From assembly GCF_002160915.1 (NCBI RefSeq), contig NZ_NFLM01000011.1, forward strand, positions 1 to 64,000: a stretch of 64,000 nt of DNA, given 5' to 3'. Below, one piece after another: positions 126 through 24,196 of this stretch. Source of the stretch: Faecalibacterium sp. An121. Its GTDB lineage: Bacteria; Bacillota; Clostridia; Oscillospirales; Ruminococcaceae. Each line of letters begins with the position of its first letter. The first letter of the stretch is position 1. Under the pieces are notes generated by a model. That model ran no database searches and was not told the origin of the DNA. It worked only from the letters and a program-made list of their open reading frames with translations. A program made the position numbers and the translations under genes.

Positions 126-3100
126 TTAGGCCCTCCTCCGAAAATACTCAATCAGAATCTCTTTGATGTAGTGGTATCTTCGGGCATAGGTATTTTCTAC
201 TCGTATCAGCTCAAAGCCGTGGTCCCGGCAAATTTTCTCTTTTTTGCGGTCCCGCTGCTGGACGATCGGGTCATCTTTATGTTCCTGGCCATCCAGTTCA
301 ATGGCCAGAATCGGGATGAGCTGCTGGCGGCCCTCCCGCTGATACACCACAAAATCAAACCTGCCGGTATAAAACAAATCGCAGTAACTGGGGTTATTCT
401 GAAACACATGGGAAATCGCCACTTCGCGCCGCACCGTGTACCGTTTTTCTGAGAGGAACACATTATCCAGCGCATGATTCAGCGTTTGCAGGAAGGCTTC
501 TTCCGTCTCGGTGCTGTAGGGCTTAATCCCCAGCGCCCGGGACGCTGCCGGCTTGGGGGACACCTCTGACACACCATTGCTCCGGACGTATTTCACCAGA
601 TCATACAGGTCATCGTCTGTTTCCGTCCCATGCAGACGCTCCAGCTCCTGGTTATTGGAAAGCAGGACCAGCTGGTCTTTCGCCCGAGAGGTGGCCACAT
701 TAATCAATTCCTTGTTATTCTTCAGCCATTGGTAAGTCTGCGGGCGGGTTTTGTCGGTCAGGGCCAGCGAAAAAATCACCACATCCTTTTCGTCGCCCTG
801 AAAGGAATGAACCGTCCCGCAGGTTCCGTTGCTGTAATGCTTCTCGGTCAGCATCTGCTGGATTAGTTCCCTCTGACGTGCAAAGGGCGTAATGATCCCA
901 ACAGATTTTTCCGGGTATTTGCTCAGATACCGATCGATCAAATCTACCTCCGCCGGGGCCGTGTTCTTTTCTGTGCTCGTGTCATGGGGCAGATTCACAT
1001 AGACCAGAGGTCTTTTGCTTTTCCCTTTGCTGGCCACCTGCAATTTTTGATTGTAGTATTTTTTATTGTTGAAGGCGATAATTTTCGGATCACAGCGATA
1101 GTGATACCGCAAAAGCACCTCATCACTGACCGAGTCGCAGGCCAAAAAGCAGGTATAGACGGAATTTCGGATATAATCGTGCTCCTCCCCCACATGGTAT
1201 CTCTTTCTCAACACCTCATTGTCCTTGGGGTCCAGCAGAATCACCGGCCGGAGCTGCTGTGGGTCCCCTACCAGCATCAACGAATTTCCCCGTACAATCG
1301 GAACCAGGGAGACTGCCGTGTTGCACTGGCTGGCTTCGTCCATAATCACCATATCGAAGGCTGGTTCGGGGTCGCCCAGACGCTGTGCCGAAATACAGGT
1401 CGTTGCCACAAAGGGGAAAATCCGCAAGAATTTTTTCAGGTTTTCTTCTTTGGACAGGTATCGATGAAAGGCCAGCACGTTGGCAGCCGGATCGGCCTCG
1501 CTGTAAATGATGGACTTTAACTCCTCATTTTTCGGCTCGCCCAAACGGCGAATGTACTTGGCCGAAGTGTAGTAGAGGTATTTTAAGAATTCCTGCTCAT
1601 TCTGGTCCAACAGTGCCAGAGCATCCTCTGTTGTCACGGTTCCCCGGCGCTTCAGTTCAGCTTCCACTTTCGGCAGCTGACCGGTCTGCAATTCAAACTG
1701 GAAATTCATGTGGTTGCGGGCTTCCAGCAACCTTTGAATGGTCTCCCGGCGTTCCTGCAAATCCAGGATCTCGTCGTATCGTTCCAGCAGTTCGGTCAGA
1801 CGCTTTGCCCGTTCCACCCGCTGTTCGTGGTTGCGATCCAGCGTCTTTTCATAGACGGTAATTCTCTGACAAGCTTCGTACATCTGGCGGATCTCTTTTA
1901 ACGCCCGCTCGACGCAGTCATTATTTCCCAAACGAACGATGGGAAACGGAATTTTTTGGCCTTTATACTCCAGGCTTTTCAGTTTTTTCACCACACCGTC
2001 GATGGGATGATTGTTGTAAGAGGCAAACAAAACGGTCCGCTCGTTAAAAAACGCCGTGGTCATGGTGTTTACGATGGTATTTGTCTTGCCGGTACCCGGC
2101 GGCCCCTGCACATAGGCAATAGGATACCGCATCGCATTGTTGATGGCGAGCATCTGATCCAGATTGACCTTGTTGTTGAGCAGCGCCAGAGGAAAGGATT
2201 TTCTTCTGCGGGGCCGCGCCACCATCTGACGAAAAAATGCCTGGATCGGGGGCGTCACTCCCTCCCCTTCCGGTGCATCAAACATCCGGGAAATTCCGCG
2301 GTACTCGTGTTCCAGGTCCACCAAAACTTCCCGCCCAATGGCCACAAGATAGGGCATATCATCCACACCCTGAATCCAGCTGCAGGTCTGGGTCATGCGA
2401 TCCTTGATCTCTTCTGCATTCTCTTCAAATTCATCCAGCAGCGCGTAGTCCTCGGCGTCCAGGAAAGCGTGTGCACTTACTTTCACCCCATCCACCGTGA
2501 ACTCCCGGCAGACCACAACCTTGTCCACCGGCCGCAATGTACGATTTTCAATATCCAGTCCTAAGGGCTGATAGGCCAGCACATACAATCCGCGGTCTGT
2601 ATGGACGCTGAGCAAATTCATCCCCAGCTGCCGGAGCTGGCGTTTTTTTCGATTTGATTGGGACTCAATGCGGTTCTGAAAATTCCGCACGATCTCCGCA
2701 AATTGCACTCCATTCAGGGCAAGCGTGCCATCTTGAAACCGGTCCTGATCCAGCTGAGAAATCAGGAAGTATTCTGTCTTATAGGGTGTACTGTCCAGTT
2801 TGTGGCAATCTGTCAGATATTCCAAAACCCGAAGATTTGCCGTATTACCAAAAAGGACTTCATATTTGCGAGGGTTTTCCATGACATCCTGAACCAGGGC
2901 CTCGTTGATCTCGCACCAGGATCCTTCGATCACCTCGGCAGAAATGATCCGTTCCACCCGGATATAAAGTTCCTGCACCGTCAGTCTGCCCAGATGCAGC
3001 CCGTCCACCTGCATCTGTCCATTCTGGGGAGAAAGAGTTTTGACCGCAATCCAGTATTTTGTGATTTGCTCGCTTTGATTCTTATAAACGATGCTCAGCC

Positions 3101-3155
3101 ATTTGCCTTTGTGGATTGCCTCAAAAAGCGCCTTTCCTATGCTGTTCATATTCAT
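126..3155 (-). CDS. SF1 helicase with WYL-like N-terminus and C-terminal nuclease-like domain
   Basis: A 1009-residue superfamily 1 DNA/RNA helicase. Residues about 8-80 have the strand pattern and spacing of a WYL domain, a ligand-sensing fold common in defence regulators. Residues about 175-225 look like a second, divergent copy. The motor starts with Walker A GPPGTGKT (351-358). An inserted helical, probably coiled-coil segment follows (about 430-520), then Walker B/motif II DEASQ (606-610) and motif III GDPQQL (630-635). The last 80 residues carry a D...E-L-D-G-x-x-H pattern (D934, E953, D955) typical of DUF2726-like restriction-endonuclease-fold modules. It is the last gene of the minus-strand operon, 108 bp after the SF2 helicase. 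The helicase call is firm. The WYL and nuclease calls rest on motif reading. A role in anti-phage defence is inference from the neighbourhood. Confidence 0.8.
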   Translation of the reverse strand: MNMNSIGKALFEAIHKGKWLSIVYKNQSEQITKYWIAVKTLSPQNGQMQVDGLHLGRLTVQELYIRVERIISAEVIEGSWCEINEALVQDVMENPRKYEVLFGNTANLRVLEYLTDCHKLDSTPYKTEYFLISQLDQDRFQDGTLALNGVQFAEIVRNFQNRIESQSNRKKRQLRQLGMNLLSVHTDRGLYVLAYQPLGLDIENRTLRPVDKVVVCREFTVDGVKVSAHAFLDAEDYALLDEFEENAEEIKDRMTQTCSWIQGVDDMPYLVAIGREVLVDLEHEYRGISRMFDAPEGEGVTPPIQAFFRQMVARPRRRKSFPLALLNNKVNLDQMLAINNAMRYPIAYVQGPPGTGKTNTIVNTMTTAFFNERTVLFASYNNHPIDGVVKKLKSLEYKGQKIPFPIVRLGNNDCVERALKEIRQMYEACQRITVYEKTLDRNHEQRVERAKRLTELLERYDEILDLQERRETIQRLLEARNHMNFQFELQTGQLPKVEAELKRRGTVTTEDALALLDQNEQEFLKYLYYTSAKYIRRLGEPKNEELKSIIYSEADPAANVLAFHRYLSKEENLKKFLRIFPFVATTCISAQRLGDPEPAFDMVIMDEASQCNTAVSLVPIVRGNSLMLVGDPQQLRPVILLDPKDNEVLRKRYHVGEEHDYIRNSVYTCFLACDSVSDEVLLRYHYRCDPKIIAFNNKKYYNQKLQVASKGKSKRPLVYVNLPHDTSTEKNTAPAEVDLIDRYLSKYPEKSVGIITPFARQRELIQQMLTEKHYSNGTCGTVHSFQGDEKDVVIFSLALTDKTRPQTYQWLKNNKELINVATSRAKDQLVLLSNNQELERLHGTETDDDLYDLVKYVRSNGVSEVSPKPAASRALGIKPYSTETEEAFLQTLNHALDNVFLSEKRYTVRREVAISHVFQNNPSYCDLFYTGRFDFVVYQREGRQQLIPILAIELDGQEHKDDPIVQQRDRKKEKICRDHGFELIRVENTYARRYHYIKEILIEYFRRRA

Positions 3156-3263
3156 CTATCCTTGCGTATAGGGTTTTCTTTATTGTCACAAAGTAATCCC
3201 ATAAAATCCGAGTGTTATCTTTGCCCTATGCAAGTTTCTTGCAGGCAACGGGCGAACCGTTTT

Positions 3264-5528
3264 TCATTTCAACCGCTCAAAGTAACTCTCCAGCTTTTCA
3301 TCACAGATCCGCTGGATCTCCCGTTTTTCTTCCTGGGTCAGCTTCTTCCAGACCGATTCATCCACCTGGACCACGCCCAGGGTCTTGGTATGGTGCAGCA
3401 TCTGCATATCCTCGAACCGCTTGAAGGGGTTGGACAGGATGTTCCGCTGGGCCTGGGCGTCGGTATAGTCGCCTCTTGCATAGATGCTGTTGGCTTTTTC
3501 CACCACCAGACCAGCGGCCCTCCGGGCCTCATAGAATTTCCGGAAATAGTCAACGATATCGCTGAGCTTCATTCGGCCTTTGTTGTCTGCAAGAGAAAGA
3601 ATTGCTTTCAGCAGCACCGGCTTATAGGAGTAGCTCATATCCATCTGACGAACCATCTCCATGAACAGATCCTTGCGGTTGGAGTCATCAATGAGCGTCC
3701 AGCCATATTGCTCAGCGTACTTCTTGAGGGTCTCTTCTTTGAAGTACTTGAAGGTCCGGTGCTCGCTCATGGGGACAACCAAATCCGGCACCAGCAGGCC
3801 TTCCCGCACATATCGCTCGATGGTTTCAGTCTGCACATCCACCCGGCGCACAAACTCCATCTGGGAGATCATGCCGGCAGCCTCTTCCTGCCAGTTGAAA
3901 AGATCAACCAGCTCATAATCCAGTGCATCCACAGGCCAGTCAATGATCGCGTCGGGGCGTTCGCCGCGCTCATACAGGCCTTGCTCTGCCATTTTCTGCT
4001 TCTTGCTTCCCAATACCAGCGCACCCGGTCTGTACTCCTTCAGACGGAACAGCCGGTGCATCGAATAAGGCATATTATACTGGCTGGCGTTGTCCACAAA
4101 GTCAAACACCAGCAGACTTTCCTTGCCGGGCGACAGCCGCATACCGCGGCCCAGCTGCTGGGTGTAGAGCACCTTGGACATAGTGGGCCGGGCCATGAAG
4201 AGCACCTCGGTGGCCGGGCAGTCCCAGCCCTCGTTAAGTAGATCACAGGCACACAGGACCTTTGTTTGTCCCTTTTCAAAGCGGGCCAGAATTTCCCGCC
4301 GGTCGGCCGCTTTGATTTCACCAGATACTGCTTCGGCAGCCACGCCGGCGTCATGAAGCCGCCCTGCAATTTCCTTTGCATGCCGGACAGATGCGCAGAA
4401 AATCACAGTGCGCTTATCCTTCACATATTGCAGCCATGTGTCCACAATCAGCTGATTCCGTTCCGGCACATAAATTTTGCTCTCCAGGTCCCGGATGTTG
4501 TACTGGATGCTGTTGAAGCGCACCTTGGTCAAATCGATATTGGTATGGATTCGGATGCAGCGCACAGGCACCAGTTCACCGATCTCCACGGCTGTCTGGA
4601 TGTCCAGTTTGTGGGCGGTATGTTTGAAGATGTCCAGAATATTCTTGTCATCGGCCCGCTCCGGCGTGGCGGTCAGACCCAGGGTGAATTCTGGTGTAAA
4701 ATAGGCCAGGACCTTCTGGTATGTATCAGCAGAGGCGTGGTGGGCCTCATCCACAATGATGTAGCCGAAGTCGTCTGGCTTGAACTGCTCCAGATTCAAA
4801 GCCACACTCTGAATGCTGCCGCAGACGACGAAAGCGTCCTTTTCCTTTGCACTCTCCACATAGCGGCCCACTGTGGCCTGGGGCCACAGTTCCCGGAATG
4901 TTCTGGCTGCCTGATCCACCAGCTCCACAGTATGGGCCAGGAACAGCGTTCGCTTGCCAAAGCGCTTGGCATCCATGACAGCGGTCACCGTTTTGCCAGT
5001 GCCGGTGGCATGGTAAAGCAGGGCAATGGTCTCAAAACGGCTGCGCATCTCCTCCAGTGCAGCCAGTGCCTGCTTCTGGTGCTCCTTCAGTTCCAGACGG
5101 GAGCCATCCAGAGACTTGCCCCGCTGGGTAGGAAGATAGTCCTCAATCTCCTTGAAGCTGGGATGCTGGCCCAGAAAGACCCGCAACTCATCCTTGACCG
5201 TTTCCGGCTGCTGCTGCATCTGCCGCACCGCCCAGCGGTACACATCCCAGCCCAGGTAGATCATGCTGTTCTGTTTGAGCAGATCATCATAAAACTTGTT
5301 CCGAGAAACCAGCTTGGGGTTATGGGAGGCTTCATCGTCAATCTCAATGGCCACTTTCCGCCCGCCGTTCTCGATCATAAAATCGGCAAACCGGCTGTTC
5401 TGATAAATATCAAAGAAAGGGTACTGGGAGTAGAGATAACCTGCCTTTTCAGCACCAAAGGTGTCAGAAAACAATTCAATAAACAAGTCCTCGGCACTGC
5501 TGCCAGAGATTGAACGATAAGTAGGCAT
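3264..5528 (-). CDS. SF2 DEAH-type helicase with N-terminal nuclease-like domain
   Basis: A 754-residue superfamily 2 helicase. The first 100 residues contain FADF (D49), IEID (E62, D64) and H69 with a following K78, the layout of a Vsr/DUF2726-like restriction-endonuclease fold. The motor has Walker A ATGTGKT (174-180), DEAH (260-263), TATP (286-289) and motif VI QQLGRGMR (457-464). About 200 C-terminal residues have no domain I can name. It starts 9 bp after the stop of the small PD-(D/E)XK-like gene, so the two are almost certainly co-transcribed. The related nuclease-like block in the downstream SF1 helicase suggests that both helicases act on DNA in one pathway. That is inference. A generic repair helicase is the alternative. 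Confidence 0.8.
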   Translation of the reverse strand: MPTYRSISGSSAEDLFIELFSDTFGAEKAGYLYSQYPFFDIYQNSRFADFMIENGGRKVAIEIDDEASHNPKLVSRNKFYDDLLKQNSMIYLGWDVYRWAVRQMQQQPETVKDELRVFLGQHPSFKEIEDYLPTQRGKSLDGSRLELKEHQKQALAALEEMRSRFETIALLYHATGTGKTVTAVMDAKRFGKRTLFLAHTVELVDQAARTFRELWPQATVGRYVESAKEKDAFVVCGSIQSVALNLEQFKPDDFGYIIVDEAHHASADTYQKVLAYFTPEFTLGLTATPERADDKNILDIFKHTAHKLDIQTAVEIGELVPVRCIRIHTNIDLTKVRFNSIQYNIRDLESKIYVPERNQLIVDTWLQYVKDKRTVIFCASVRHAKEIAGRLHDAGVAAEAVSGEIKAADRREILARFEKGQTKVLCACDLLNEGWDCPATEVLFMARPTMSKVLYTQQLGRGMRLSPGKESLLVFDFVDNASQYNMPYSMHRLFRLKEYRPGALVLGSKKQKMAEQGLYERGERPDAIIDWPVDALDYELVDLFNWQEEAAGMISQMEFVRRVDVQTETIERYVREGLLVPDLVVPMSEHRTFKYFKEETLKKYAEQYGWTLIDDSNRKDLFMEMVRQMDMSYSYKPVLLKAILSLADNKGRMKLSDIVDYFRKFYEARRAAGLVVEKANSIYARGDYTDAQAQRNILSNPFKRFEDMQMLHHTKTLGVVQVDESVWKKLTQEEKREIQRICDEKLESYFERLK

Positions 5529-5537
5529 AGAGGCACC

Positions 5538-5996
5538 TCACATGATCCGTTCCAGCCGGTCCGCTTCCGGGACCTGGACCTGCAGACTTCGCAATTTTGC
5601 CAAAGAAATGGGCCGCTGGCCGTTCTTCTGCATTTTCCCGCAATGCTCCCAGGCAAGTTTGCCCGGCCCATTGTATACCTCGGAAAAGGTGCCATCCGGA
5701 TGGATCTGCAGCACCAACAGCCATTCCGGTTTGCTCGAGAGTGCGACCCGGTCAATTTGGGTCGCTTTGATTTGAACCAGCCGGCCATCCGGCGCTTTGG
5801 CATCGTGGGTTTCTGCCGACGCCTCAAACAGCGCCAAGCCATAGCAGCAGGCCGCCAGCGCCTCGCCAATGCTCCCGATCATATGTCCATCGGGCGTATA
5901 GTGTCTCCCGGGAAACAGTTCTTCCAGTTCATGCGAAACACGATAAAGGGTTTTTATTTTTTCCGCTACCATTTCCTGTATCGTTGCTGCGCTCAT
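5538..5996 (-). CDS. Small PD-(D/E)XK-like protein (DUF6998-like)
   Basis: A protein of about 152 residues. The order G-x-x-G-E (GSIGE), then an Asp-rich turn, then DGRLVQIKATQ fits the E...D...(Q)xK active-site pattern of restriction-endonuclease-fold proteins, and the overall layout resembles DUF6998 family members. I chose the ATG at 5996 over a GTG at 6002 because it overlaps the MazG stop as ATGA and has an AAGGA Shine-Dalgarno at proper spacing. Flanking genes lie within 9 bp or overlap, so it is an integral part of the operon. Its substrate is unknown. A non-catalytic structural role is possible, because only the K/E/D pattern supports catalysis. Confidence 0.6.
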   Translation of the reverse strand: MSAATIQEMVAEKIKTLYRVSHELEELFPGRHYTPDGHMIGSIGEALAACCYGLALFEASAETHDAKAPDGRLVQIKATQIDRVALSSKPEWLLVLQIHPDGTFSEVYNGPGKLAWEHCGKMQKNGQRPISLAKLRSLQVQVPEADRLERIM

Positions 5997-6310
5997 TCCC
6001 ACACTTCCTTCAGCAGAATCTTTTTTGCAAATCCGCCGCGTTCGGCTGCCTTGTCCGCCCGCACTTGCTCCAGCTCATCCAATGTCCAGCCGCGAGCCCG
6101 CACAACCGCCTGCATGACCTCCAAAAGATCGGCTAATTCCTCCAGGGATTTGCTCTCCTGGTATTCCGCCAGCTCTTCGTTCAGCTTTTGGTCCAGAAGC
6201 CGGATGTACGCCTCATCGGACAGCGTTTCACAGACACAGATCTTCCCGTCCGCCTCGATGATCTCCGGGATACGGTCGCGGACCAACTTATGATAGGTTT
6301 TCACCAACAT
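5993..6310 (-). CDS. MazG-like nucleoside triphosphate pyrophosphohydrolase
   Basis: A 105-residue all-alpha NTP pyrophosphohydrolase. The N-terminus YHKLVRDRIPEII is the hallmark of the phosphoribosyl-ATP pyrophosphohydrolase-like/MazG clan. The helices carry the metal-binding pattern E-E-L-A-E-Y (residues about 45-50) and E-E-L-A-D-L-L-E-V (about 57-65). Such enzymes hydrolyse (d)NTPs to NMP and PPi and appear both in house-cleaning and in nucleotide-depleting defence. An AGGAGG-type ribosome site lies 8 nt before the ATG. The gene overlaps the upstream NUDIX gene by 23 nt and the downstream gene by 4 nt, which points to coupled translation. Confidence 0.85.
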   Translation of the reverse strand: MLVKTYHKLVRDRIPEIIEADGKICVCETLSDEAYIRLLDQKLNEELAEYQESKSLEELADLLEVMQAVVRARGWTLDELEQVRADKAAERGGFAKKILLKEVWE

Positions 6311-6683
6311 CTTTTAGCCTCCTCAAAATCTCCTCGTCCGCCGGACAGAAGGCATACTGGTCGATCTCATTTACCGTGATCCAGCGGATATCGTTGTGCT
6401 CCAGCTTCTGGGGAGTTCCCTCCCGGATGGTCGCATGGAACAGGGTCAGATCCACCGTCATGTCCGGGTATTCGTGGACCACGTCCATAAACACTTTGCC
6501 AACATCCAGGGTAATGGCCAGCTCCTCCTGACACTCCCGGATGAGCGCCTGCTCTTTGGTCTTCCCCGGCTCCACCTTTCCGCCCACAAACTCCCAGAGC
6601 AGCCCTCTGGCCTTATGGGCCGGGCGTTGGCAGATCATAAATTTCTCCTTGTCCCAGATTAAGGCTGCGACGACTTCAGTCAT
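6288..6683 (-). CDS. NUDIX hydrolase (MutT/8-oxo-dGTPase type)
   Basis: A 131-residue NUDIX hydrolase. The NUDIX box runs from GGKVEPGKT through ALIRECQEELAI and matches GX5EX7REUXEEXGU except at its last position. It is preceded by the WEFVGGK element usual in (deoxy)nucleotide diphosphatases of the MutT/CTP pyrophosphohydrolase type. I chose the ATG at 6683 because GAGG lies a proper distance upstream. A longer reading frame to 6737 would overlap the preceding gene without a ribosome site. With the MazG-like enzyme it makes two nucleotide-cleaving activities side by side in a helicase/nuclease operon. Confidence 0.85.
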   Translation of the reverse strand: MTEVVAALIWDKEKFMICQRPAHKARGLLWEFVGGKVEPGKTKEQALIRECQEELAITLDVGKVFMDVVHEYPDMTVDLTLFHATIREGTPQKLEHNDIRWITVNEIDQYAFCPADEEILRRLKDVGENLS

Positions 6684-6708
6684 ATAATTTCCTCGATCAT
6701 CTTCTCGA

Positions 6709-7269
6709 TCATCTTTGAATGAACGCAATGACAGCATCTAAATTGTCTAAGATAAATTGCTGCGCCGATCTATTATAAACCACAACTGTATAAGGTCCTC
6801 TTAGGCTCTGCCTCTCCTCCGTGGAAATACCAATATCAATTCCCTGATCCGTTGGTCTCCGGACTGTTTTTCCATCATCTTTCACAACCAATTTCAAAAA
6901 TCCAGTTTCCATAAGCCAATCCGCGATCTGCTTATAAGTCAGTTTTTTCATCTCCTCCGGCTGAATCAACGCGTTAATTCTACGTTCAATTTCACTGATT
7001 GGAATAGGCAGCTCCGAATATTCAAATTTTTCTCGACTTTCGTAATCCAGCTGGAACGGAACCTTGGAAGATTTATTTTTTGACTGAGAAATCCCTTTAT
7101 TTTCTACAACTTGCCTCAAGAGGTCTGACACGTAAAAAAGACAGCGAGATATCTTCACATTATTTATGATATCAGAATCTGGCACCTCTTGATTTGTCAA
7201 TGGATTGATTCCGTTGGCAAGTTTTTCTATGTAACTCTTTGCATAGGCAATCTTCTCCAGCTCGGTCAT
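6709..7269 (-). CDS. Conserved protein of unknown function in the helicase operon
   Basis: A 186-residue protein I cannot assign to a named family with certainty. It begins MTELEKIAYAKSYIEKLANG and has a helical N-terminus, a basic low-complexity linker near residue 65, a central helix-turn-helix-like stretch (KLTYKQIADWLMETGFLK, about 108-125) and a C-terminal segment ending in YNRSAQQFILDNLDAV. A good ribosome site (AAAGGAG) precedes the ATG. It sits between the remnant of a DUF3427 helicase and the NUDIX gene, with 25 bp to the latter. I recall similar proteins near DUF3427 helicases, which would make it part of the ancestral module, but that is memory rather than a search. Confidence 0.7.
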   Translation of the reverse strand: MTELEKIAYAKSYIEKLANGINPLTNQEVPDSDIINNVKISRCLFYVSDLLRQVVENKGISQSKNKSSKVPFQLDYESREKFEYSELPIPISEIERRINALIQPEEMKKLTYKQIADWLMETGFLKLVVKDDGKTVRRPTDQGIDIGISTEERQSLRGPYTVVVYNRSAQQFILDNLDAVIAFIQR

Positions 7270-7536: not shown

Positions 7537-10500
7537 TTATGAGATACTATTTTTCTTTTCTAATTTCTTTCTAATCACTTTGTAATACCGGCTATTGCCT
7601 TGAGCTTCTTCATAATTAGCAATTAAGCCCTTCTCTTTAAATGCCATTAGAAGACGCTTATTTTCATCACTAATGTCAAATCTAGGTCTACTGTGTTCAT
7701 CAAATATCTTATTAAAATTAGTCAAATTAAGCACATTAAGTATTTCTTTAATTTGGTCAATACAAAGCATTGGAATCATCGCGGAAAAAAGATAAATTTT
7801 CATCGATTCATCTAGTTTACTAGAATGAAGAAGACTATTCTTTAATTTTTCCGACACATTGGCGTAATTTTTTATAATGACTTCCATATTACTTAATGCA
7901 TAATCAAATATTTTTGTCCGAATCGAGTCCTCCCACTGCTCATACGTTGAAAATAGAGATACCAAATCAGAATTCTCAAAATTATTATCAAGAATATATA
8001 GGCAAATTTTGGGAGAATAATTTTTCCCAATCACCGAGATTGCACAACTCGAAAATTTAAGTAGTTCAATTTTCAGATTTTCTTCAATATCCCATGTAAG
8101 TATCTCCAACAGCTCCTCCTGTGAAAACAAATCATTAGACATTATGCTTACATACTCTACTATGTTTTTACATATAAAATATAGTTTTAGGTCAGAATAA
8201 TATTGTCGTAAAAAAATTAAGTTTTTAGCAGTCATTTTTATAATATCTGCATCAATTAAAATCGTCACTTTTTCAAGTGGAATATTTAAAATTTCAAAGT
8301 CATCATAATAAAAGCCCAAAGCCACCAATACTTGTTTATACTTTGAATTGACGATATCTCCACATCTCACCACGCCCTCAAAAAGTTTTTCTTTGCAAGA
8401 TTCCTCATCTTTAAATCCTGAAAAATCAAACTGGATATCACATCTATTAATATATGAAATAACGCCTTGAGACAATTCAAGTATATTGAACTCATCGATA
8501 ATATTACGTTCCGAATATTTTACTATATCGGCCTCTAGAAGATCTTCCCATAAAGTATGATCCGTAACATCACTTATAAAAGTAATAGTTGTCTGCAATG
8601 CTGAAATATACGCACATTTATGTTCAACCATAAGTTCCGGATTATTCAGTACTGAAATAACAGTTTTCTCATCGTCAAAAATAATCCCCCCACACATCTG
8701 CAGTATAACAACAAAATATTCATTAATGTTATGATTTACATATTGAGTTATGGCAGAATCCGGATATGAAAGTAAGCAAGTATAATTCTTATGTGCAATA
8801 TCATCATTACTTATATTCAAGATGTTGCCCTGAATAAGTTTTAGATTTTCGGCACTGATCTCATACAAAGATTCTTGATAAACCGCGTGAAACAGATCCT
8901 TATTTAGGATTTCATAATCAAAGTTCTCAAAACATACTCCAAGTAACTTAAACCCATGAATCAGCTTATTAATGTCTGGTTCATCTATTGCAAGATAATC
9001 AGATCTTCTGGAAATATAGTCGCAAAGGCAATTATCTTTATTAACCAATTTTATTGTATTTTCATCAGAATAATAAAGCGAAGCAATTGAATACTGACGA
9101 ATCTGTTTTTTTGTAAGAGCCTGTTTATCAAGAGCCGTGCAAAACAATTCAGGCCACTTCAAATTAAGACATTTAACATATTCATTTCGATCAGATGCAA
9201 CATCAAAGTATTGCCCTACAAATTTATAATTATTTGTAGCCTTAAGTTGGTTAATAAATTTTTCCAGATAATCAGCATGAGTTTTAGTGTTCAACAAATA
9301 TGTGAGCAAAGAAAAATTCAAGATTTCTTCCTGGTCAAAATCCACTAATCTAAGCCGCAATACAACCATTTGAGGATTTTTTAATTTATAGGAATATTCT
9401 TTTGCCTTTTTGTCTGTTATACTCCTCAGAAAAATCTTATCAATACGGCTCAAACTATTCTCGTAAAAATAGGTCATATAGTCAGCATAGGTCTCATCAA
9501 TATAGCCATTTCGGATAAGATATTTAAGGAGATCAAAGTATTCGCTGCTTTTTATCTCGTTAAAATCTGTTACTTTTCCAATTTCATTTATGCTTGTAAC
9601 ACTAAATATAGAGTCAACATTTTCTCTTTTAATAATATCTTTCAATTGTTTGTTTTTCAAAAAAAGAAGTTCTTGATCGAGCGCAGATTTTTCATCTTCC
9701 ATCTGAGAGATAGTATTATTCAGTCTTTGTTCAAGGGCTTTCTTGCGATTTGTATATTCAGTTTGGTCTTCACTCGATAGCTTTTTCCTGCTATTCCAGT
9801 AATCAGATGTCTTTTTTGTGTCGAAGTATACATCTAGCTCGTGAATCGTTTTAAAATGCTCGTTTTTTGCCATCTCGATTTCATGGCTTTTTTCAGCAAT
9901 TTTTTCTTTAAGTCTTTTTATCTCCTTTTCTATAAATAAATCCTTACTATCAAAAATCGTATATACAAAGCCCTTATTAAGCTGCAAATCAGAAAAATCA
10001 CGTGGGAACAAATTTTTATATGCAATAATGGCAAGCATCTTATTGCAATCGAGTTCTGTAATATTCAGTCTATTAAAATAAATTACAAACTCGTTGTAGA
10101 TATTTTTTAACAGACGCATATCATCAATATAAAGAGATAAACCTTGCAAAAAGCCCTCGTCAAACTTTTGAAATAATCCGCTCTTTTTAAAATGAGAAAC
10201 AAACTGGTCATAGGAGTTGGAACCATCTATAACCGGCACAACAGGAATGATATAATCAAAAAATTTTGTTCTGTCTTTAGACACAAAAATATCATCACGC
10301 AACAAATAAAAAAAGCGCAGAATCTTTTTGTTCTCTTTTTGAAGTTGAATGTTCGCAAGTGTATTCACTTCACGAAGATGCTCAAAAATTCCATTTACAT
10401 TAAATCGATCCATATCTTCGAATACGATGGCATCAGCATCCGCATTTTCGAAGAGATATAATACTTCATTGAGATATTTATCAAAATATGAATCATCGCT

Positions 10501-11148
10501 TTCTTCCATTATTTCAATCTCATTGCCTTGTAAATTAAGCTTACGAAAAACATTTTTATTCTTTTGAATCAATCTATATATAAAAAATCCAAATAATACA
10601 ATTAAGATACTCCCATCAACCATTAAAGTTAATGGATCTGTAGATAACTCTATGATTATCTTCAACCAATTCGCGTGTATCCTCCAATCTGCTAGTAACG
10701 TCGATACGTATGCTTTCCATATATTAAAGTACACAAAATGCATCGTTGCAATTAAAAAGACAACGACTGCTAATGTTTTTACCGCAATGCATCTGCCGCT
10801 AATTCTTTTTTTCACTTTGAAATTTGTTAACGGAATTTTGTTTGAAGGGATCTGATGTATTAACTGATTTAAAATTTTTCCCTCTAATATTGATTGCTTC
10901 ACCTCTATTTCATCTTTTTCATTTGGTGATTGGAAATGTGCAAGTGAAATATGAAGAAACCGCAATTTTTCATGTTTTTTCTTGTATGATGCTAAAACAC
11001 TACTTTTTCCGGCACTATATGCGCCTGAAATAGCCACATTTTTTATATCGCTATTTTCAAACACATAATTTAAAGCATCCTCATAAACATCCAAATCCAT
11101 ATTATCGATTGGTGTTAGCCGCTCAAATTTATACTTGCGTTCTGGCAT
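7537..11148 (-). CDS. YobI-type P-loop NTPase (KAP-like), membrane associated
   Basis: A protein of about 1203 residues. The N-terminus reads ALNYVFENSDIKNVAISG and then GAYSAGKSS, a Walker A in the setting of the YobI-ATPase family. A Walker B-like VFEDMDRF occurs near residue 240. Two hydrophobic segments (about 122-145 and 180-198) look like a membrane hairpin inserted in the ATPase domain, as in KAP-type NTPases. A long coiled coil follows (about 405-520), then a large helical, Leu/Ile/Asn/Lys-rich C-terminal half without recognisable domains. I chose the ATG at 11148 because AAGGAAGG lies just upstream; an ATG at 11178 is weaker. The coding sequence is far more AT-rich than any neighbour, a clear sign of recent transfer. 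No obvious terminator follows. Its function in bacteria is not established, and a defence role is inference. Confidence 0.75.
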   Translation of the reverse strand: MPERKYKFERLTPIDNMDLDVYEDALNYVFENSDIKNVAISGAYSAGKSSVLASYKKKHEKLRFLHISLAHFQSPNEKDEIEVKQSILEGKILNQLIHQIPSNKIPLTNFKVKKRISGRCIAVKTLAVVVFLIATMHFVYFNIWKAYVSTLLADWRIHANWLKIIIELSTDPLTLMVDGSILIVLFGFFIYRLIQKNKNVFRKLNLQGNEIEIMEESDDSYFDKYLNEVLYLFENADADAIVFEDMDRFNVNGIFEHLREVNTLANIQLQKENKKILRFFYLLRDDIFVSKDRTKFFDYIIPVVPVIDGSNSYDQFVSHFKKSGLFQKFDEGFLQGLSLYIDDMRLLKNIYNEFVIYFNRLNITELDCNKMLAIIAYKNLFPRDFSDLQLNKGFVYTIFDSKDLFIEKEIKRLKEKIAEKSHEIEMAKNEHFKTIHELDVYFDTKKTSDYWNSRKKLSSEDQTEYTNRKKALEQRLNNTISQMEDEKSALDQELLFLKNKQLKDIIKRENVDSIFSVTSINEIGKVTDFNEIKSSEYFDLLKYLIRNGYIDETYADYMTYFYENSLSRIDKIFLRSITDKKAKEYSYKLKNPQMVVLRLRLVDFDQEEILNFSLLTYLLNTKTHADYLEKFINQLKATNNYKFVGQYFDVASDRNEYVKCLNLKWPELFCTALDKQALTKKQIRQYSIASLYYSDENTIKLVNKDNCLCDYISRRSDYLAIDEPDINKLIHGFKLLGVCFENFDYEILNKDLFHAVYQESLYEISAENLKLIQGNILNISNDDIAHKNYTCLLSYPDSAITQYVNHNINEYFVVILQMCGGIIFDDEKTVISVLNNPELMVEHKCAYISALQTTITFISDVTDHTLWEDLLEADIVKYSERNIIDEFNILELSQGVISYINRCDIQFDFSGFKDEESCKEKLFEGVVRCGDIVNSKYKQVLVALGFYYDDFEILNIPLEKVTILIDADIIKMTAKNLIFLRQYYSDLKLYFICKNIVEYVSIMSNDLFSQEELLEILTWDIEENLKIELLKFSSCAISVIGKNYSPKICLYILDNNFENSDLVSLFSTYEQWEDSIRTKIFDYALSNMEVIIKNYANVSEKLKNSLLHSSKLDESMKIYLFSAMIPMLCIDQIKEILNVLNLTNFNKIFDEHSRPRFDISDENKRLLMAFKEKGLIANYEEAQGNSRYYKVIRKKLEKKNSIS

Positions 11149-11199
11149 ACTGCTTCCTTCCTTTTCTCTTTTATTCATAACATGGAAAATTTCCGGTAA

Positions 11200-19647: not shown

Positions 19648-21219
19648 TCATCGCTCTACATCTTGTTCCTGCTGATGCCGTTCATCTGTTTTTGCGGATT
19701 CCTTTTGAGAATCTTTAATCTGCTTAAGAACAGAGAACTTCTTTTCTGGTGGATTTCCTATTTCTACCTTTTCCGGCCCCAGAACCTGACTGACCCAATA
19801 GTGGATTTCGTTCAGCGGTTTCAGCTCCGCCTGCACTTGTTCTAGCTGCCGGGCAAAGTCTGCGTGATCCGATTGCAGCTTGCCGTGCTCCGCCTCCAGG
19901 GCATCCAGATTCACATTCAGATCAACGTGCTGCTTTTTCAAATAGCGGTAGGCTTTGTTGTAGGCTTTCAGCTCCTCTTGGTGGCTCTCGGCAAAGGCGG
20001 CCTGTCTCTTTTTCCAGCCGATCTTCAGGTACTTATCATGGACGGGCTTCTGTTCCCGGCAGACTGCAACGGCATTCTGAATCCCGGCAATGTCCTTCAT
20101 CCGCTTCTCGGCCTTTCTCATACCGGTATGGGCCTGGCTAGCTTTCTGCTTCACGCCGGACAGGACGGTGTTCAACTGCTCTAGGGTCGAGATCTTATGC
20201 TGTTGGAGATAAACAACAGCCCTTGCTACATCCTTCAAATCCTTCAGGTCGCCCTTCTGCTGCCCGAACCAGGACCAGTCACTTCGTTCTGCTTTCCGTT
20301 GGTTCAGGTAATCATTGAGGAGTACCCCAAGGTCTGTAGATGCTGCCTCCTCTTTCAGCAGTTCTTTCTCTGCCTGGATAAGCTCCCCCACCCAATCTAA
20401 CAGGCTCCGAATGGTTTTGCGAATGGCGGACAACATCTGGTTGGCCGCCTTGATATCCCGGTTGAGATTGCCGATGTTGGTCTGGATGCCCCGCCGCTCC
20501 ATTTGAACCACCGCTGGCCCCATGTGAACGGTGGGGATCACATCCAAGCCCTGCCGCTCATAGGAGCGCAGGTCAAGCCGTTCCGATCTGCCTGCTGCTT
20601 CCAGGTAACGGTTGACGGTATCGGCCCAGCCTTGCCGCCAAATCTCCGCATACTTCTGGTCATTCCAGTCCACAGTATCTTCCTTGTGGCTTTTCCAGTT
20701 GCCAGAGGGCAAGCGAATTCGTTCGCCGTTTTCATCCAGGTCATAAACCTTCCGGCTCTTGGGGAGCCACTTGCCGGTTTCGTCCATGGCTCGAAGGGTT
20801 AGCATCACATGACAGTGAACATTGTGTCCGGGCGGGGCCGGATCATGGATGGCGAAGTCAGCGATCATCCCCTTGGAAACAAACTGTTTCTCGCAGTAGT
20901 CCCGTACCATCTGTGGGTACTGCTCCGGTGGGACTTCTTTGGGCAGGGCCAGCACAAAGCGCCGGGCCAGCTGGGCGTTCCACTGTTTCTCAACCGCTTC
21001 CACCGAGTTCCAGAGGGTTTCCCGGTTAGCGTATTCCGGCGGAGCGTGAGATGGCAGCATGATTTCCGTGTACAGGATGCCGCGCTTGCCGGAGTAGTTT
21101 TTAGTTTTTTGGTCATACTCAGAAAACAACTTCTCGCCGCTCTGGTAGGCGGCACCGGCAACGGCAGACTGTCCCTTGCTGCGCTGGGTGATGGTGATTT
21201 GAAAATGCGGACATGGAAT
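19648..21219 (-). CDS. mobL: MobA/MobL-family relaxase
   Basis: A HUH relaxase of about 523 residues that nicks oriT and leads DNA transfer. The family N-terminus CPHFQITITQRSKGQSAV, then GAAYQSG (probable catalytic Tyr25), is present in frame only if translation begins at an ATT codon (21217-21219). A near-perfect Shine-Dalgarno (GGAGGTGAT) lies at normal distance before that ATT. The first conventional alternative, a TTG at 21129, would delete the first 30 residues including Tyr25. The metal-binding motif HNVHCHVM is near residue 130. The C-terminal half is a long coiled coil. The start is either a genuine AUU, which would keep expression low, or a mutated ATG. Confidence 0.85.
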   Translation of the reverse strand: MPCPHFQITITQRSKGQSAVAGAAYQSGEKLFSEYDQKTKNYSGKRGILYTEIMLPSHAPPEYANRETLWNSVEAVEKQWNAQLARRFVLALPKEVPPEQYPQMVRDYCEKQFVSKGMIADFAIHDPAPPGHNVHCHVMLTLRAMDETGKWLPKSRKVYDLDENGERIRLPSGNWKSHKEDTVDWNDQKYAEIWRQGWADTVNRYLEAAGRSERLDLRSYERQGLDVIPTVHMGPAVVQMERRGIQTNIGNLNRDIKAANQMLSAIRKTIRSLLDWVGELIQAEKELLKEEAASTDLGVLLNDYLNQRKAERSDWSWFGQQKGDLKDLKDVARAVVYLQQHKISTLEQLNTVLSGVKQKASQAHTGMRKAEKRMKDIAGIQNAVAVCREQKPVHDKYLKIGWKKRQAAFAESHQEELKAYNKAYRYLKKQHVDLNVNLDALEAEHGKLQSDHADFARQLEQVQAELKPLNEIHYWVSQVLGPEKVEIGNPPEKKFSVLKQIKDSQKESAKTDERHQQEQDVER

Positions 21220-21235
21220 AAGACATCACCTCCCA

Positions 21236-21267
21236 AACAAAAAGACCGTTCTTTTGATGAACGGTCT
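21236..21267 (-). terminator. Attenuator-like hairpin before the relaxase
   Basis: A perfect 9-bp inverted repeat (AGACCGTTC 21243-21251 / GAACGGTCT 21259-21267) is followed, reading the minus strand, by TTTTTGTTT and then directly by the relaxase ribosome site. It has the form of an intrinsic terminator placed inside the leader. Confidence 0.6.
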
Positions 21268-21444
21268 AGAATCATATTCGGTTGTACTCTCTGCCTTAGG
21301 ATGGAGCGGGGTGTGCTTCGGCCCTGGGCGAGAGCTGCAAAAGGATAGCTGCGGAGCAGCGCAAGGAAAATGCAGTTTTCCTTGGGATGAAATCGGGATG
21401 GCGAACGGAACGCCAGCCCGGTTTCATCAAGCCGTCTGCAAGAC

Positions 21445-21475
21445 CGCAATTGCACCGGAACGGTGTATAATTGCG
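21445..21475. other. Candidate oriT inverted repeat
   Basis: CGCAATTGCACCG (21445-21457) and CGGTGTATAATTGCG (21461-21475) form an imperfect inverted repeat separated by 3 nt, in the gap between the relaxase and the DUF3847 gene. This is where MobA/MobL elements normally carry oriT, and the sequence style resembles known oriT hairpins. A nearby stem AAGGAAAA/TTTTCCTT (21360-21380) adds structure. The nic site cannot be fixed by eye. Confidence 0.5.
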
Positions 21476-21480
21476 CCCTA

Positions 21481-21786
21481 TTACAATAGGGTTGGATCTC
21501 CTCGGGCTTCCTGCAAATCGTGAATCATCTTTGCCAGGGCCAGCGCAACCTCCTGTTGACGAAATGAAAGCTTTAGCAGCTCCATCACCTGGTCGTCAGT
21601 CAGCTCTCCGGGGCAGATCAGAAAACTTTCCAGCATCCCGCCGCGCGTACAGAGACGATGGGTGCGGGCCTTGCGGGTCAGCTCCGGTATCCGGCGCTCC
21701 AGCATTTTCTCCTGGTGCTGGTAGTAACGGAGCTTCTGTTCGGCTTTTTTCTTTTGGTCTTTCATGCGATCCAGTTTTTTACTCAT
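21481..21786 (-). CDS. DUF3847 small protein of mobilizable elements
   Basis: A 101-residue basic, coiled-coil protein beginning MSKKLDRMKDQKKKAEQK. It continues with RKARTHRLCTRGGMLES, the conserved core of DUF3847 proteins encoded beside MobA/MobL relaxases. The ATG at 21786 has GGTGGAGG upstream. It probably acts as a transfer accessory at the adjacent oriT, by analogy with neighbours in such elements; no direct function is known to me. Its stop codon lies 5 bp from the oriT-like repeat. Confidence 0.75.
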   Translation of the reverse strand: MSKKLDRMKDQKKKAEQKLRYYQHQEKMLERRIPELTRKARTHRLCTRGGMLESFLICPGELTDDQVMELLKLSFRQQEVALALAKMIHDLQEARGDPTLL

Positions 21787-21843
21787 AATCCTCCACCTCG
21801 TATAATAAGATTTGCAGGTAATTTTTAAGTGTATCCGATTCAT

Positions 21844-21990
21844 TCACTCCATATAATCAGCAGGCTTAGAGATGCCCGTGATACAATAGCTGTAGGACGG
21901 CAGGGACAAGTTCTCCACCACCTCGTTGGACTGAAAAGTCACTTCAAAAGGAGTTAGTTCCCCTGAGCCGGAAGTTAGCTGCAAACTCAT
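21844..21990 (-). pseudogene. C-terminal fragment of an unidentified gene at the IS110 left edge
   Basis: A minus-strand frame of 48 codons (from an ATG without a ribosome site, or as an open fragment) reads ELTPFEVTFQSNEVVENLSL and ends SYCITGISKPADYME. It looks like the C-terminus of a small mobile-element protein rather than a complete gene. The frame runs into the presumed IS110 left end, so it is probably a gene cut by the insertion. I cannot name the family. Confidence 0.35.
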
Positions 21991-22149
21991 TGGCTGTTTG
22001 CTGGATGCAAGGCTGCCCTTTTAGCAGTAAGGGATATCGCATTAGCCTTCTCCGGAATGATTCTGATACGCGAGGTTGCAGATGCTCCGGTTATCATGGG
22101 TATCTCAAAGCCTGCTGGCCTTAAATCTCCATACAGGGAGGTGAAAATT
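21970..22149 (+). ncRNA. Possible IS110 bridge RNA region (left end)
   Basis: The stretch between the presumed left end and the transposase start is non-coding and contains several short pairing segments (for example GCTGCCCTT near 22010 with a following TAAGGG). In IS110-group elements this position encodes the bridge RNA that pairs with target and donor DNA. The assignment rests on position only. Loops matching the flanks could not be resolved by eye. Confidence 0.4.
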
Positions 22150-23376
22150 GTGAATCCATTATTTGTTGGCATTGATGTGAGCAGCAGAAGCAATGTAGTC
22201 TATCTGATGAATCCTGACGGCAGCAAGTATTCCAGTTTTTCCGTACAGAATAACTTAGGTGGTGCCAAGCTATTGTCAGAGAAAATCGTGTCAGCACTCA
22301 GCTCCATGCAGCTCAGTGATGTGGTGATTGGTCTGGAGGCCACCTCCATTTACGGGGACAGCCTGGTTTATGCCCTCCGGGAGGATGGCAGTCTTGGCCG
22401 GTTCCAGCGGAAGATTCATATTCTTAATCCGAAGCAGGTTAAAAAATTCAAGGAGGCCTATCCAGATCTACCTAAAAACGACTGGGTGGACGCCTTTGTA
22501 ATTGCCGACCATCTCCGTTTTGGCAGGATCGCCAAGGAGGTCTATCTAGATGATTATCGTTACCATGCACTTAAAACCCTTACCAGAGCCAGATTTGACG
22601 TGATTCAAAACCTGAGCCGAGAGAAGCAGCGGTTTGCAAACTATTTATTCTTAAAATGTTCCGGTATGGCTCAAGACAAGGATATCCCAAATACCAGTGC
22701 CACCACCATTGCACTCATGGAACACTTTGAAAGCGTGGATGAACTGGCAAATACAGATTTGAACGAACTGACTGCTTTTATTTCCGAAACAGGACATGGA
22801 AGATTTGCTGACCCAGCAGCTACTGCCAAGGCAGTTCGTGCTGCGGCCAGCGGCTCTTACCGGTTGCCTAAAACGGTGAACGACACCGTAAACCAGGCTA
22901 TGGCGATATCTATTGCCTCCATGCGGGCTTTGGAAAAACAGGTCAAAATTTTGGATAAGGCTATTGATCAGCAGTTTGAGATCATCCCAAATACCTTGAC
23001 ATCTATCCCCGGCATTGGCAGGGTCTACTCTGCTGGTATCATTGCTGAGCTTGGTGATATACACCGCTTTGATTCTCAAGCTTCTGTCGCCAAGTTTGCT
23101 GGCCTTGTCTGGCATAAGAACCAGTCCGGTGACTTTGAGGCCGAGCATTCTCGGATGATTAAATCTGGCAACCGTTATCTTCGCTACTACCTGCTGGAAG
23201 CCGCCAACTCTGTGAGAAGATGCGACTCAGAGTTCCGACGTTATTACGACCTTAAATTTAAAGAGGTCAACAAGTACCAGCATAAACGCGCACTCGCTTT
23301 CACTGCCAGAAAACTTGTTCGGTTGATCTTTCGACTGCTGAAGGACAATCGCTTGTATATCCCGCCAGAGGGCTGA
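22150..23376 (+). CDS. IS110-family DEDD transposase/recombinase
   Basis: A 408-residue recombinase. The N-terminal RuvC-like DEDD domain shows GIDVSS (first Asp), GLEATSIYGD (Glu) and NDWVDAFVIADHL (two Asp). The C-terminal Tnp_20 domain shows IPGIGRVYSAGIIAELGDI and KSGNRYLRYYL, with the conserved serine of IS110 enzymes. I chose the GTG at 22150 because AGGGAGGTGA precedes it and the family starts with this MNPLFVGIDVSS-like sequence; upstream codons are the non-coding left end. No frameshift is visible, so it may be active. Confidence 0.9.
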   Translation: MNPLFVGIDVSSRSNVVYLMNPDGSKYSSFSVQNNLGGAKLLSEKIVSALSSMQLSDVVIGLEATSIYGDSLVYALREDGSLGRFQRKIHILNPKQVKKFKEAYPDLPKNDWVDAFVIADHLRFGRIAKEVYLDDYRYHALKTLTRARFDVIQNLSREKQRFANYLFLKCSGMAQDKDIPNTSATTIALMEHFESVDELANTDLNELTAFISETGHGRFADPAATAKAVRAAASGSYRLPKTVNDTVNQAMAISIASMRALEKQVKILDKAIDQQFEIIPNTLTSIPGIGRVYSAGIIAELGDIHRFDSQASVAKFAGLVWHKNQSGDFEAEHSRMIKSGNRYLRYYLLEAANSVRRCDSEFRRYYDLKFKEVNKYQHKRALAFTARKLVRLIFRLLKDNRLYIPPEG

Positions 23377-23518
23377 GCGTATCGCTCGCCGCTTTGCTGC
23401 GCAGGCCCTGTTTTAAAATTTTTCAGGGGCAGGGCTTAGGTTTGTGTCGCCTTTTTGCAACCTACATCGTGCTTCCTGCTCTATTTTTCTCATTTTTTCT
23501 TGCATTATCTGCTTGACT

Positions 23519-24088
23519 TCACACCATTGGACTCCTGTGAAAAATCAGACTCCGGGCATCTGCCCAGAGTCGTGAAATTGGTTTATTCCGGCCTCCCCCG
23601 CCCGGAAAGGAAAGGATCAGTCTCGTTCTACTCTGTATGGTTCTATCATTCTTATTAGGGTGTAGATTCTACACTTCTGGAAGTGTAAAACCTACACCGC
23701 CGGAAGTGAACTTCTGACACTTCCAGAATCGTCATCCCAGGGCATCCATAAACTTCTTCACATAGATCAGGCTGGGCCGGCCCTGGCCCTGCCGCCTGCG
23801 TTCGATAAGGTCTGCCTTCTCCTCCAGCTCCCGCAGCAGGCCCACTGCCTTCTTGTTGCTGCACTTCAGATGCTCCATAATGCTCTCCACCGTGAAAATG
23901 ATATACACCCTCCCTTCTTCATCCTTCCACCCGTTCTTCACCGAGAGGCTCATCCAGTCCAGCAGCAAACCGTAGAGGACTTTGGCGTCAGTGGAAATGC
24001 CGCGAAAGGTAGAGTCTGTGAACAGCGCTTTGGGGATGCGGTAGAAGGCGAACTGCTCCGCCTGGGGGCCGTAGAAGTAGTTGGGCAT
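23519..24088 (-). pseudogene. repA: Frameshifted replication initiator gene (RepA N-terminal type)
   Basis: From ATG 24088 (AAAGGAGG upstream) about 118 codons encode a complete RepA_N domain: EQFAFYRIPKALFTD, STDAKVLYGLLLDWMSLS and MEHLKCSNKKAVGLLRELEE. The frame then stops at 23732. The typical linker continues in another frame (MTILEVSEVHFRRCRFYTSR, then SVESTP). After one more base shift it continues as PNKNDRTIQSRTRLILSFPG and stops at 23519. The C-terminal domain is missing. Two frameshifts plus truncation make a non-functional initiator likely, although the short first frame could still be translated. Confidence 0.7.
23671..23726. repeat. GGAAGTG/CACTTCC repeats within repA
   Basis: ACACTTCTGGAAGTGT (23671-23686, a 7-bp-arm palindrome), CGGAAGTG (23701-23708) and GACACTTCCAG (23716-23726) repeat one motif in both orientations. 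Repeats inside the rep linker are common in RepA_N replicons and may be the initiator binding sites. Confidence 0.5.
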
Positions 24089-24120
24089 AGGGCCTCCTTT
24101 CTGCATTTGGGCAAAATAAA

Positions 24121-24161
24121 AAAGCGTTTGTGGTATCTTTGCAGAAACACACAAACGCTTT
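24121..24161 (-). terminator. Terminator upstream of repA
   Basis: A 12-bp stem (AAAGCGTTTGTG / CACAAACGCTTT) with a T-run in minus-strand orientation (TTTTTTATTTT), about 30 bp before the repA start. It acts as a terminator or attenuator. Confidence 0.65.
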
Positions 24162-24170
24162 GACGAAAAA

Positions 24171-24196
24171 ACGGAGGCAGCTTTCACTGCCTCCGT
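24171..24196 (-). terminator. Terminator, probably ending the ppdK transcript
   Basis: A 10-bp stem (ACGGAGGCAG / CTGCCTCCGT) with a 6-nt loop, followed in minus-strand direction by TTTTTTC. It is the first terminator after ppdK and forms a tandem pair with the hairpin at 24121. Confidence 0.7.

What the first reader, a model, noticed from the sequence alone, without database searches (positions are those of the whole stretch)
126..7269. Compact two-helicase/nuclease/nucleotide-hydrolase operon, possible new defence system
Six overlapping or tightly spaced minus-strand genes combine an unknown protein, NUDIX, MazG-like, a PD-(D/E)XK-like protein, an SF2 helicase with N-terminal nuclease-like motifs and a WYL-like SF1 helicase with C-terminal nuclease-like motifs. 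I know of no named defence system with exactly this set. Two nucleotide-cleaving enzymes together with two helicase-nucleases suggest sensing of foreign DNA coupled to nucleotide depletion. The flanking R-M system, fic relic and YobI-type gene make it a defence island.
Basis: partly seen in the sequence, partly recalled or inferred. Interest (0 to 1): 0.85.

Follow-up and report, generated by a model that had tools for sequence, protein, structure and literature searches.

The report
Restriction helicase paired with nucleotide hydrolase
The six-gene cluster is real but is a patchwork; its conserved heart is an unnamed two-gene unit, a probable DNA-cutting helicase beside a small nucleotide-cleaning enzyme, with a slot between them where nuclease or DNA-binding genes are swapped, which may show how such cutters are kept from harming their own host.

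Summary
The six minus-strand ORFs at 126-7269 are real, but they are not one conserved system: 0 of 80 related loci hold homologues of all six. The conserved unit is C-E. E (3264-5528) is a Vsr/MTES_1575-like nuclease fused to a SauUSI/RadD-type SF2 helicase; C (5993-6310) is a MazG/PRA-PH-like NTP pyrophosphohydrolase. C lies upstream of E within 2 kb, mostly within 60 nt, in 73 of 80 loci. In other orders of the class 6 of 8 loci have a C-like gene beside E and one a HIT gene. Further out, HIT sits beside E in 5 of 9. A cassette slot between C and E is filled in 26 of 73 loci with DUF6998 (as here), HTH, PD-(D/E)XK/Mrr or NUDIX genes, with direct evidence of exchange. Neighbours include Wadjet, Dnd and pAgo. 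SauUSI-like helicases have a NUDIX gene next to them in 15 of 36 loci. Best reading: a type IV-like restriction helicase with a dedicated dNTP-pool enzyme that keeps target bases out of host DNA. Defence and substrate are inferred. I found no name for the pair.

The parts
3264..5528 (-). E, core: N-terminal Vsr/MTES_1575-like nuclease (about residues 11-120), SF2 helicase (about 145-490), C-terminal region with a weak MerR-like HTH
   Evidence: Pfam; best solved relative SauUSI then RadD by profile and fold; D49, E62, D64 invariant in 60 of 60 aligned sequences, window included
5993..6310 (-). C, core: MazG/PRA-PH-like all-alpha NTP pyrophosphohydrolase
   Evidence: EExxE...ExxD invariant in 31 of 31 sequences; relative in L325 passes the Pfam PRA-PH cut-off and is 52% identical to C; Pfam MazG-like weak in 9 of 31; fold search inconclusive
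5538..6002 (-). D, slot gene between C and E: DUF6998, probable PD-(D/E)XK nuclease (motif E47, D67, QxK 77-79, read by eye)
   Evidence: Pfam DUF6998 178.6 bits; invariant residues in 8 of 8; exchange of slot genes
6288..6737 (-). B, NUDIX (PADLOC candidate PDC-S07); real start probably near 6683
6709..7269 (-). A, unknown; shares the LANGINPLT-type start with the small slot proteins; pairs with NUDIX in L315
126..3155 (-). F, SF1 helicase with C-terminal DUF2726; separate module
   Evidence: Pfam; relatives without E

Best explanation
The functional core is the two-gene unit C-E. E is a restriction factor: a translocating SF2 motor with a Vsr-like endonuclease at its N-terminus and a recognition region at its C-terminus, which cuts foreign DNA in the manner of the type IV enzyme SauUSI. 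C hydrolyses non-canonical dNTPs. It keeps the base that E attacks out of the host's own DNA, or clears modified nucleotides released when phage DNA is degraded; it is a metabolic guard rather than a killer. Genes in the slot between C and E (here D, a probable nuclease) are exchangeable modules that change cutting or recognition. A-B and F are neighbouring modules of the same island. Shown: C-E linkage, intact motifs, slot exchange, island context. Inferred: DNA cutting, defence, the guard role, and the identity of the modified nucleotide.
For: C upstream of E in 73 of 80 loci and a C-like gene beside E in 6 of 8 loci of other orders, one fused to a macro domain. Other partners are nucleotide hydrolases too: HIT in 1 of those 8 and in 5 of 9 more distant loci. 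SauUSI-like genes have NUDIX as immediate neighbour in 15 of 36 loci, and NUDIX was found in 0 of 113 genes two or three places away (p 1.7e-7). A C relative stands directly before a SauUSI-like gene in L311. SauUSI is E's best solved relative. Printed: MazG-like DCTPP1 prefers dCTP and 5-methyl-dCTP (PMC4491611, abstract); a NudG table row gives a higher value for 5-methyl-dCTP than for CTP (PMC5158307, passages); SauUSI cuts m5C and hm5C DNA (PMC3874153, passages). Defence neighbours in 24 of 80 loci, Wadjet in 10.
Against: No activity is shown. E lacks DUF3427, the proposed reader of SauUSI. C5-methyltransferase genes lie near C-E in 3 loci (L069, L075, L085), which speaks against a broad m5C target. 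NUDIX partners do not clearly resemble NudG: NudG model higher in 6 of 10, MutT in 4 of 10, none over cut-off. The same NudG row names 2-OH-dATP as its physiological substrate. HIT enzymes are not known to me as cleaners of modified dNTPs (recalled). E also resembles the repair helicase RadD. Four of 9 distant E loci show no hydrolase (by eye); 6 of 80 lack C; 21 of 36 SauUSI-like loci lack an adjacent NUDIX.
Confidence: 0.45

Rival explanations
1. Depletion effector: E senses foreign DNA and switches on C (and NUDIX), which destroys dNTPs and stops phage replication or the cell; the first reader's idea.
For: C has an invariant catalytic motif and is tied to E in defence islands.
Against: The partner hydrolase varies between MazG-, HIT- and NUDIX-type; MutT/NudG-type NUDIX and HIT proteins are not known depletion effectors (recalled). 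E has a nuclease of its own with an intact motif.
Confidence: 0.2
2. DNA repair and pool cleaning: E is a RadD-like repair helicase-nuclease and C, HIT or NUDIX remove damaged nucleotides; nothing to do with phage.
For: RadD is the second-best solved relative and the best NCBIfam model for E, far below cut-off; NUDIX partners match MutT/NudG models.
Against: Patchy presence, full-length in 5 of 295 genomes of the order, window included; swapped slot genes; Wadjet in 10 of 80 loci and other defence genes; island context.
Confidence: 0.2
3. The six genes form one obligate defence system.
For: Tight packing on one strand in the window; F beside SauUSI-like, C and E in L078; A upstream of C-E in L100 and L108.
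Against: 0 of 80 loci have all six; the closest relative L060 (E 98%) has Wadjet upstream and other genes downstream; A-B and F occur away from C-E.
Confidence: 0.07

Closest known systems
SauUSI-type type IV restriction enzyme (PLD-SF2-DUF3427)
   Same: Related SF2 motor (top solved relative), N-terminal nuclease, motor, C-terminal region; nucleotide hydrolase as neighbour (NUDIX in 15 of 36). MutT next to SauUSI homologues in Streptococcus is noted in a figure legend (PMC7641849, passage).
   Different: E has a Vsr/MTES_1575-like nuclease in place of PLD and no DUF3427 hit; its usual partner is MazG-like; it has the C-slot-E arrangement.
RadD / XPB-like repair helicases
   Same: SF2 core.
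   Different: RadD model scores 151.5 against a cut-off of 720 and covers residues 146-484 of E only; E carries a nuclease and a hydrolase partner.
ARMADA and Druantia III-like YprA helicases with Vsr nuclease
   Same: Helicase joined to a Vsr-type nuclease (PMC12458937, passages).
   Different: For ARMADA the paper puts the Vsr nuclease at the C-terminus of a YprA-family helicase; the words MazG, Nudix and SauUSI do not occur in its text.
DCTPP1 / NudG dNTP-pool enzymes
   Same: Superfamilies of C and B; known substrates include 5-methyl-dCTP.
   Different: Not linked there to restriction; substrates of C and B are untested.

Membership tests
SauUSI-type type IV restriction (E) | Related SF2 helicase/translocase core | tested here: met
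   7clg (SauUSI) is top by profile, E 1.2e-72 over residues 145-479, and by fold, E 5.8e-20
SauUSI-type type IV restriction (E) | N-terminal PLD nuclease | tested here: not met
   No PLD hit; MTES_1575-like instead, sub-threshold
SauUSI-type type IV restriction (E) | C-terminal DUF3427 reader | tested here: not met
   No DUF3427 hit in E; the DUF3427 search did not find one in the window's genome
SauUSI-type type IV restriction (E) | Cuts modified DNA | not testable with these tools
   Needs biochemistry
Vsr/MTES_1575 PD-(D/E)XK nuclease (E N-terminus) | Pfam cut-off reached | tested here: not met
   21.5 bits for the whole protein, 24.9 for the N-terminus, cut-off 38.2; full-length viral-contig relative L206 30.4
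Vsr/MTES_1575 PD-(D/E)XK nuclease (E N-terminus) | Conserved acidic motif | tested here: met
   D49, E62, D64 invariant in 60 of 60; the motif assignment is recalled
MazG/PRA-PH all-alpha NTP pyrophosphohydrolase (C) | EExxE...ExxD metal motif | tested here: met
   31 of 31; the motif itself is recalled
MazG/PRA-PH all-alpha NTP pyrophosphohydrolase (C) | Profile or fold match | tested here: inconclusive
   L325 relative passes PRA-PH, 26.4 against 21.3, 52% identical to C; C itself none; PF12643 weak in 9 of 31; Foldseek lists MazG structures only at E 1.7 and above
PDC-S07 candidate (B) | PADLOC model match | tested here: met
   147 bits, E 5.7e-44; a candidate label, not a tested function
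Mokosh (F) | Full-length match to MkoA or MkoC | tested here: not met
   Matches cover the helicase stretch only, e.g. 333-859 to 619-1099 of 1112
Named system in PADLOC 2023 (C-E pair) | Dedicated model covering E or C | tested here: not met
   E: best are mREase_IV models over the helicase stretch (residues 149-487); C: one hit at E 0.049. DefenseFinder models were not on hand

The most novel reading that the evidence does not exclude
Restriction helicases that attack modified DNA carry dedicated nucleotide-pool enzymes as immunity proteins: MazG-, HIT- and NUDIX-type hydrolases are interchangeable guards that keep target bases out of the host genome. C-E is an unnamed branch of this class with a plug-in slot in which nuclease or DNA-binding modules are swapped by recombination.
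Probability: 0.33. Interest if true: 0.8.

Novelty: new variant of a known kind. Interest (0 to 1): 0.6.

Why it matters
Enzymes that cut modified DNA face a self-harm problem: modified dNTPs made by chance or recycled from phage DNA could be built into the host's own genome. A standing pairing of such cutters with enzymes from families known to destroy modified dNTPs would be a simple answer that can be tested directly. The slot between the two genes would also be a natural experiment in swapping nuclease modules on one motor.

Tried and rejected
Six genes as one system: rejected, 0 of 80 loci. E as a phage gene: viral contigs gave no relative with the window protein; with the alignment, of 203 relatives the best 80 were kept and only L206 matches at high identity (55%) over nearly the whole length. 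F in annotated phages: 7 records, partial, 26-27% identity. F as Mokosh: helicase-stretch match only. Plasmids: 153 records match E, none over 80% of it. C against solved structures by profile: nothing meaningful; by fold inconclusive. E's first 130 residues against solved structures: nothing. NudG against MutT scoring of NUDIX partners as a substrate test: undecided, 6 to 4 of the 10 of 15 that I gave.

Literature: nine searches, (Nudix, MazG, helicase, anti-phage defence together: 0 papers; PDC-S07: 6; DUF6998: 0; 0). None of the listings or passages seen names C-E or proposes the guard role. The library lacks most subscription papers. Seen: abstract and outline of PMC4491611; passages only of PMC11514479, PMC7159879, PMC12904381, PMC7641849, PMC12839542, PMC12458937, PMC3874153, PMC5158307.

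Weak points of the counts: C was counted if tblastn found it within 2.5 kb upstream of E (largest gap 1895 nt, L076). Many of the 80 loci are short contigs. The 80 are the best of 284 relatives, so they are the nearest kin. The Wadjet bound (p 2e-10) assumes one Wadjet per genome and treats related loci as independent; there was no matched random control. The 24 of 80 defence count includes three loci with a Wadjet-like gene named by eye and not scanned. Slot classes were set by hand; L081 was counted apart in the tree although its slot holds a DUF6998 relative, so 16 changes could be 15; L082 and L136 were left out. The tree is a FastTree with many weak forks. NUDIX, HIT and MazG neighbours were found by motif, with Pfam on some; the NUDIX expression was loosened after that had missed clear cases. 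I read 36 of 41 DUF3427 places listed; one left out (G013:C28) has a NUDIX neighbour in L032, the other four were not looked at.
Full report
Observation. The window starts at the first base of its contig, so what follows F cannot be seen. GC is 0.31-0.55 up to 24 kb and 0.60-0.70 after. The low-GC part also holds a type I R-M system, a MobA/MobL relaxase, an IS110 transposase and a RepA_N gene. The cluster thus lies in what looks like an acquired island.

Domains. B is NUDIX, D is DUF6998, E is an SF2 helicase (ResIII, Helicase_C) with an N-terminal stretch resembling MTES_1575 below threshold, F is SF1 (AAA_11, AAA_12) with DUF2726 at its end, and A and C have no usable Pfam hit. PADLOC gives B as the candidate PDC-S07, E partial matches over the helicase to type IV and other enzymes, and F partial matches to Mokosh and others. 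E's best solved relative is SauUSI, then RadD, by profile and by fold (model pLDDT 73, pTM 0.36, so only the local helicase match counts). D49, E62 and D64 of the Vsr-like motif are invariant in 60 of 60 aligned sequences. C carries an invariant EExxE...ExxD motif in 31 of 31; its relative in L325 passes the Pfam PRA-PH cut-off and is 52% identical to C. MazG-like models are otherwise weak, and the fold search with a confident model (pLDDT 96.8) is inconclusive.

Which genes belong together. A scan of genome contigs with the E alignment confirmed 284 relatives, of which the best 80 were kept, nearly all full length. C lies upstream of E in 73 of 80; one locus had no room and six lack it. In the order sample full-length E occurs in 5 of 295 genomes, the window's own included, plus two fragments. 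In the class sample (391 genomes), of 8 loci outside the order 6 have a C-like gene next to E, one of them fused to a macro domain, and one has a HIT gene; the last begins at a contig end. In the phylum sample (398 genomes) 10 further loci were read. L059 matches only over the helicase and is left out; of the other nine, 5 have a HIT gene against E, two of them from one genus (Pfam on three). The remaining four show no hydrolase by eye, and two of those have E in two frames. By contrast, A-like genes occur in 4 of the 80 loci (one weak), F-like SF1 genes in 4 (one close, 57%), the B family in 19 anywhere in the held stretch, D-like genes in the slot in 8, and all six together in none.

The slot. 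Of the 73 loci with C, C and E are adjacent in 45, a gene lies between them in 26, and 2 are unclear. Occupants: DUF6998; small 'GIDPxTGE' proteins with a Myb-like or other HTH end (weak Pfam); a PD-(D/E)XK-like protein with weak Mrr_cat and DUF4365 matches; NUDIX; and a true Mrr (E 1e-28). Exchange is direct: L066 and L073 have flanks 98% and 100% identical, yet different slot genes, with C and E at 86% and 91%; L066 and L074 have a 98% identical slot region inside C and E that are 84% and 83% identical. On the E tree the slot state changed at least 16 times (FastTree, hand-set classes). A shares the LANGINPLT-type start with the small slot proteins (read from the sequences).

Modules elsewhere. 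L315 has A followed by NUDIX, away from that genome's C-E. L313 has a SauUSI-like gene followed by F. L078 has SauUSI-like, F, C and E in a row. L311 has a C relative directly before a SauUSI-like gene, with F about 5 kb away on the other strand. L312 has F without E, C or a SauUSI-like gene in 18 kb. L036 has C, E, A and a RecQ-type helicase in a row. The closest relative, L060 (E 98%), has Wadjet upstream of NUDIX-C-DUF6998-E and other genes downstream. I therefore read the six genes as three modules: A-B, C-slot-E, and F.

Defence context. Near C-E lie Wadjet (JetC in 10 of 80), Dnd (2), SIR2-pAgo (2), C5-methyltransferase (3), type I R-M genes and others: 24 of 80 loci, or 34 of 80 with SauUSI-like genes (PADLOC on one set of representatives). 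There was no matched random control.

Nucleotide hydrolases as partners of restriction helicases. DUF3427 genes occur in 39 of 299 genomes. In 36 of the 41 listed places read, a NUDIX gene is the immediate neighbour in 15, and none was found among 113 genes two or three places away (p 1.7e-7). MutT next to SauUSI homologues in Streptococcus is mentioned in a figure legend (PMC7641849, passage), so this adjacency is partly in print. The guard reading rests on printed facts about other members: MazG-like DCTPP1 prefers dCTP and 5-methyl-dCTP (PMC4491611, abstract), NudG's row lists 5-methyl-dCTP above CTP but names 2-OH-dATP as its physiological substrate (PMC5158307, passages), and SauUSI cuts m5C and hm5C DNA (PMC3874153, passages). 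Against a simple m5C target speak the C5-methyltransferase neighbours in three loci. The undecided NudG/MutT scores leave the substrate open.

Verdict. The real find is a conserved, unnamed C-E pair with a cassette slot, probably part of defence islands, whose mechanism I take to be restriction with a nucleotide-pool guard. My separate estimates: C-E is the conserved unit, 0.9; E is a DNA-cutting defence protein, 0.75; C is a guard rather than a depleter or a plain cleaner, about 0.5 given that.

Noticed in passing
window 6288-6737: B has K in place of the first Glu of the Nudix box (GGKVEPGK); 18 of the other 19 listed relatives have E there (L137 is in another frame), so this copy may be impaired.
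   Followed up: partly
window 7537-11178: YobI-type P-loop NTPase of 1213 aa; PADLOC Tmn match over the first part (231.7 bits). A 47% relative lies next to a piece of E in L037.
   Followed up: partly
window 19648-24187: MobA/MobL relaxase, DUF3847, IS110 transposase and RepA_N gene at the end of the low-GC part: possible carrier of the island.
   Followed up: no
L325 3765-4643: Macro domain fused to a C-like PRA-PH/MazG domain, directly upstream of E.
   Followed up: partly
L181: A SauUSI-like gene with NUDIX next to it and a KLVRD-type MazG gene at the second place.
   Followed up: no
L063-L070 and L315: In several Flavonifractor/Pseudoflavonifractor loci the same SGNH-like and rhodanese-like lipoprotein genes (f7, f12) follow the variable genes, as if one chromosomal site takes changing cargo; L315 has a similar lipoprotein after A-NUDIX.
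   Followed up: no
L111 12765-15974 and L133: SIR2-fused protein matching PADLOC pAgo at 1369 bits in L111, near Dnd and C-E; a relative lies near the C-less E of L133.
   Followed up: no
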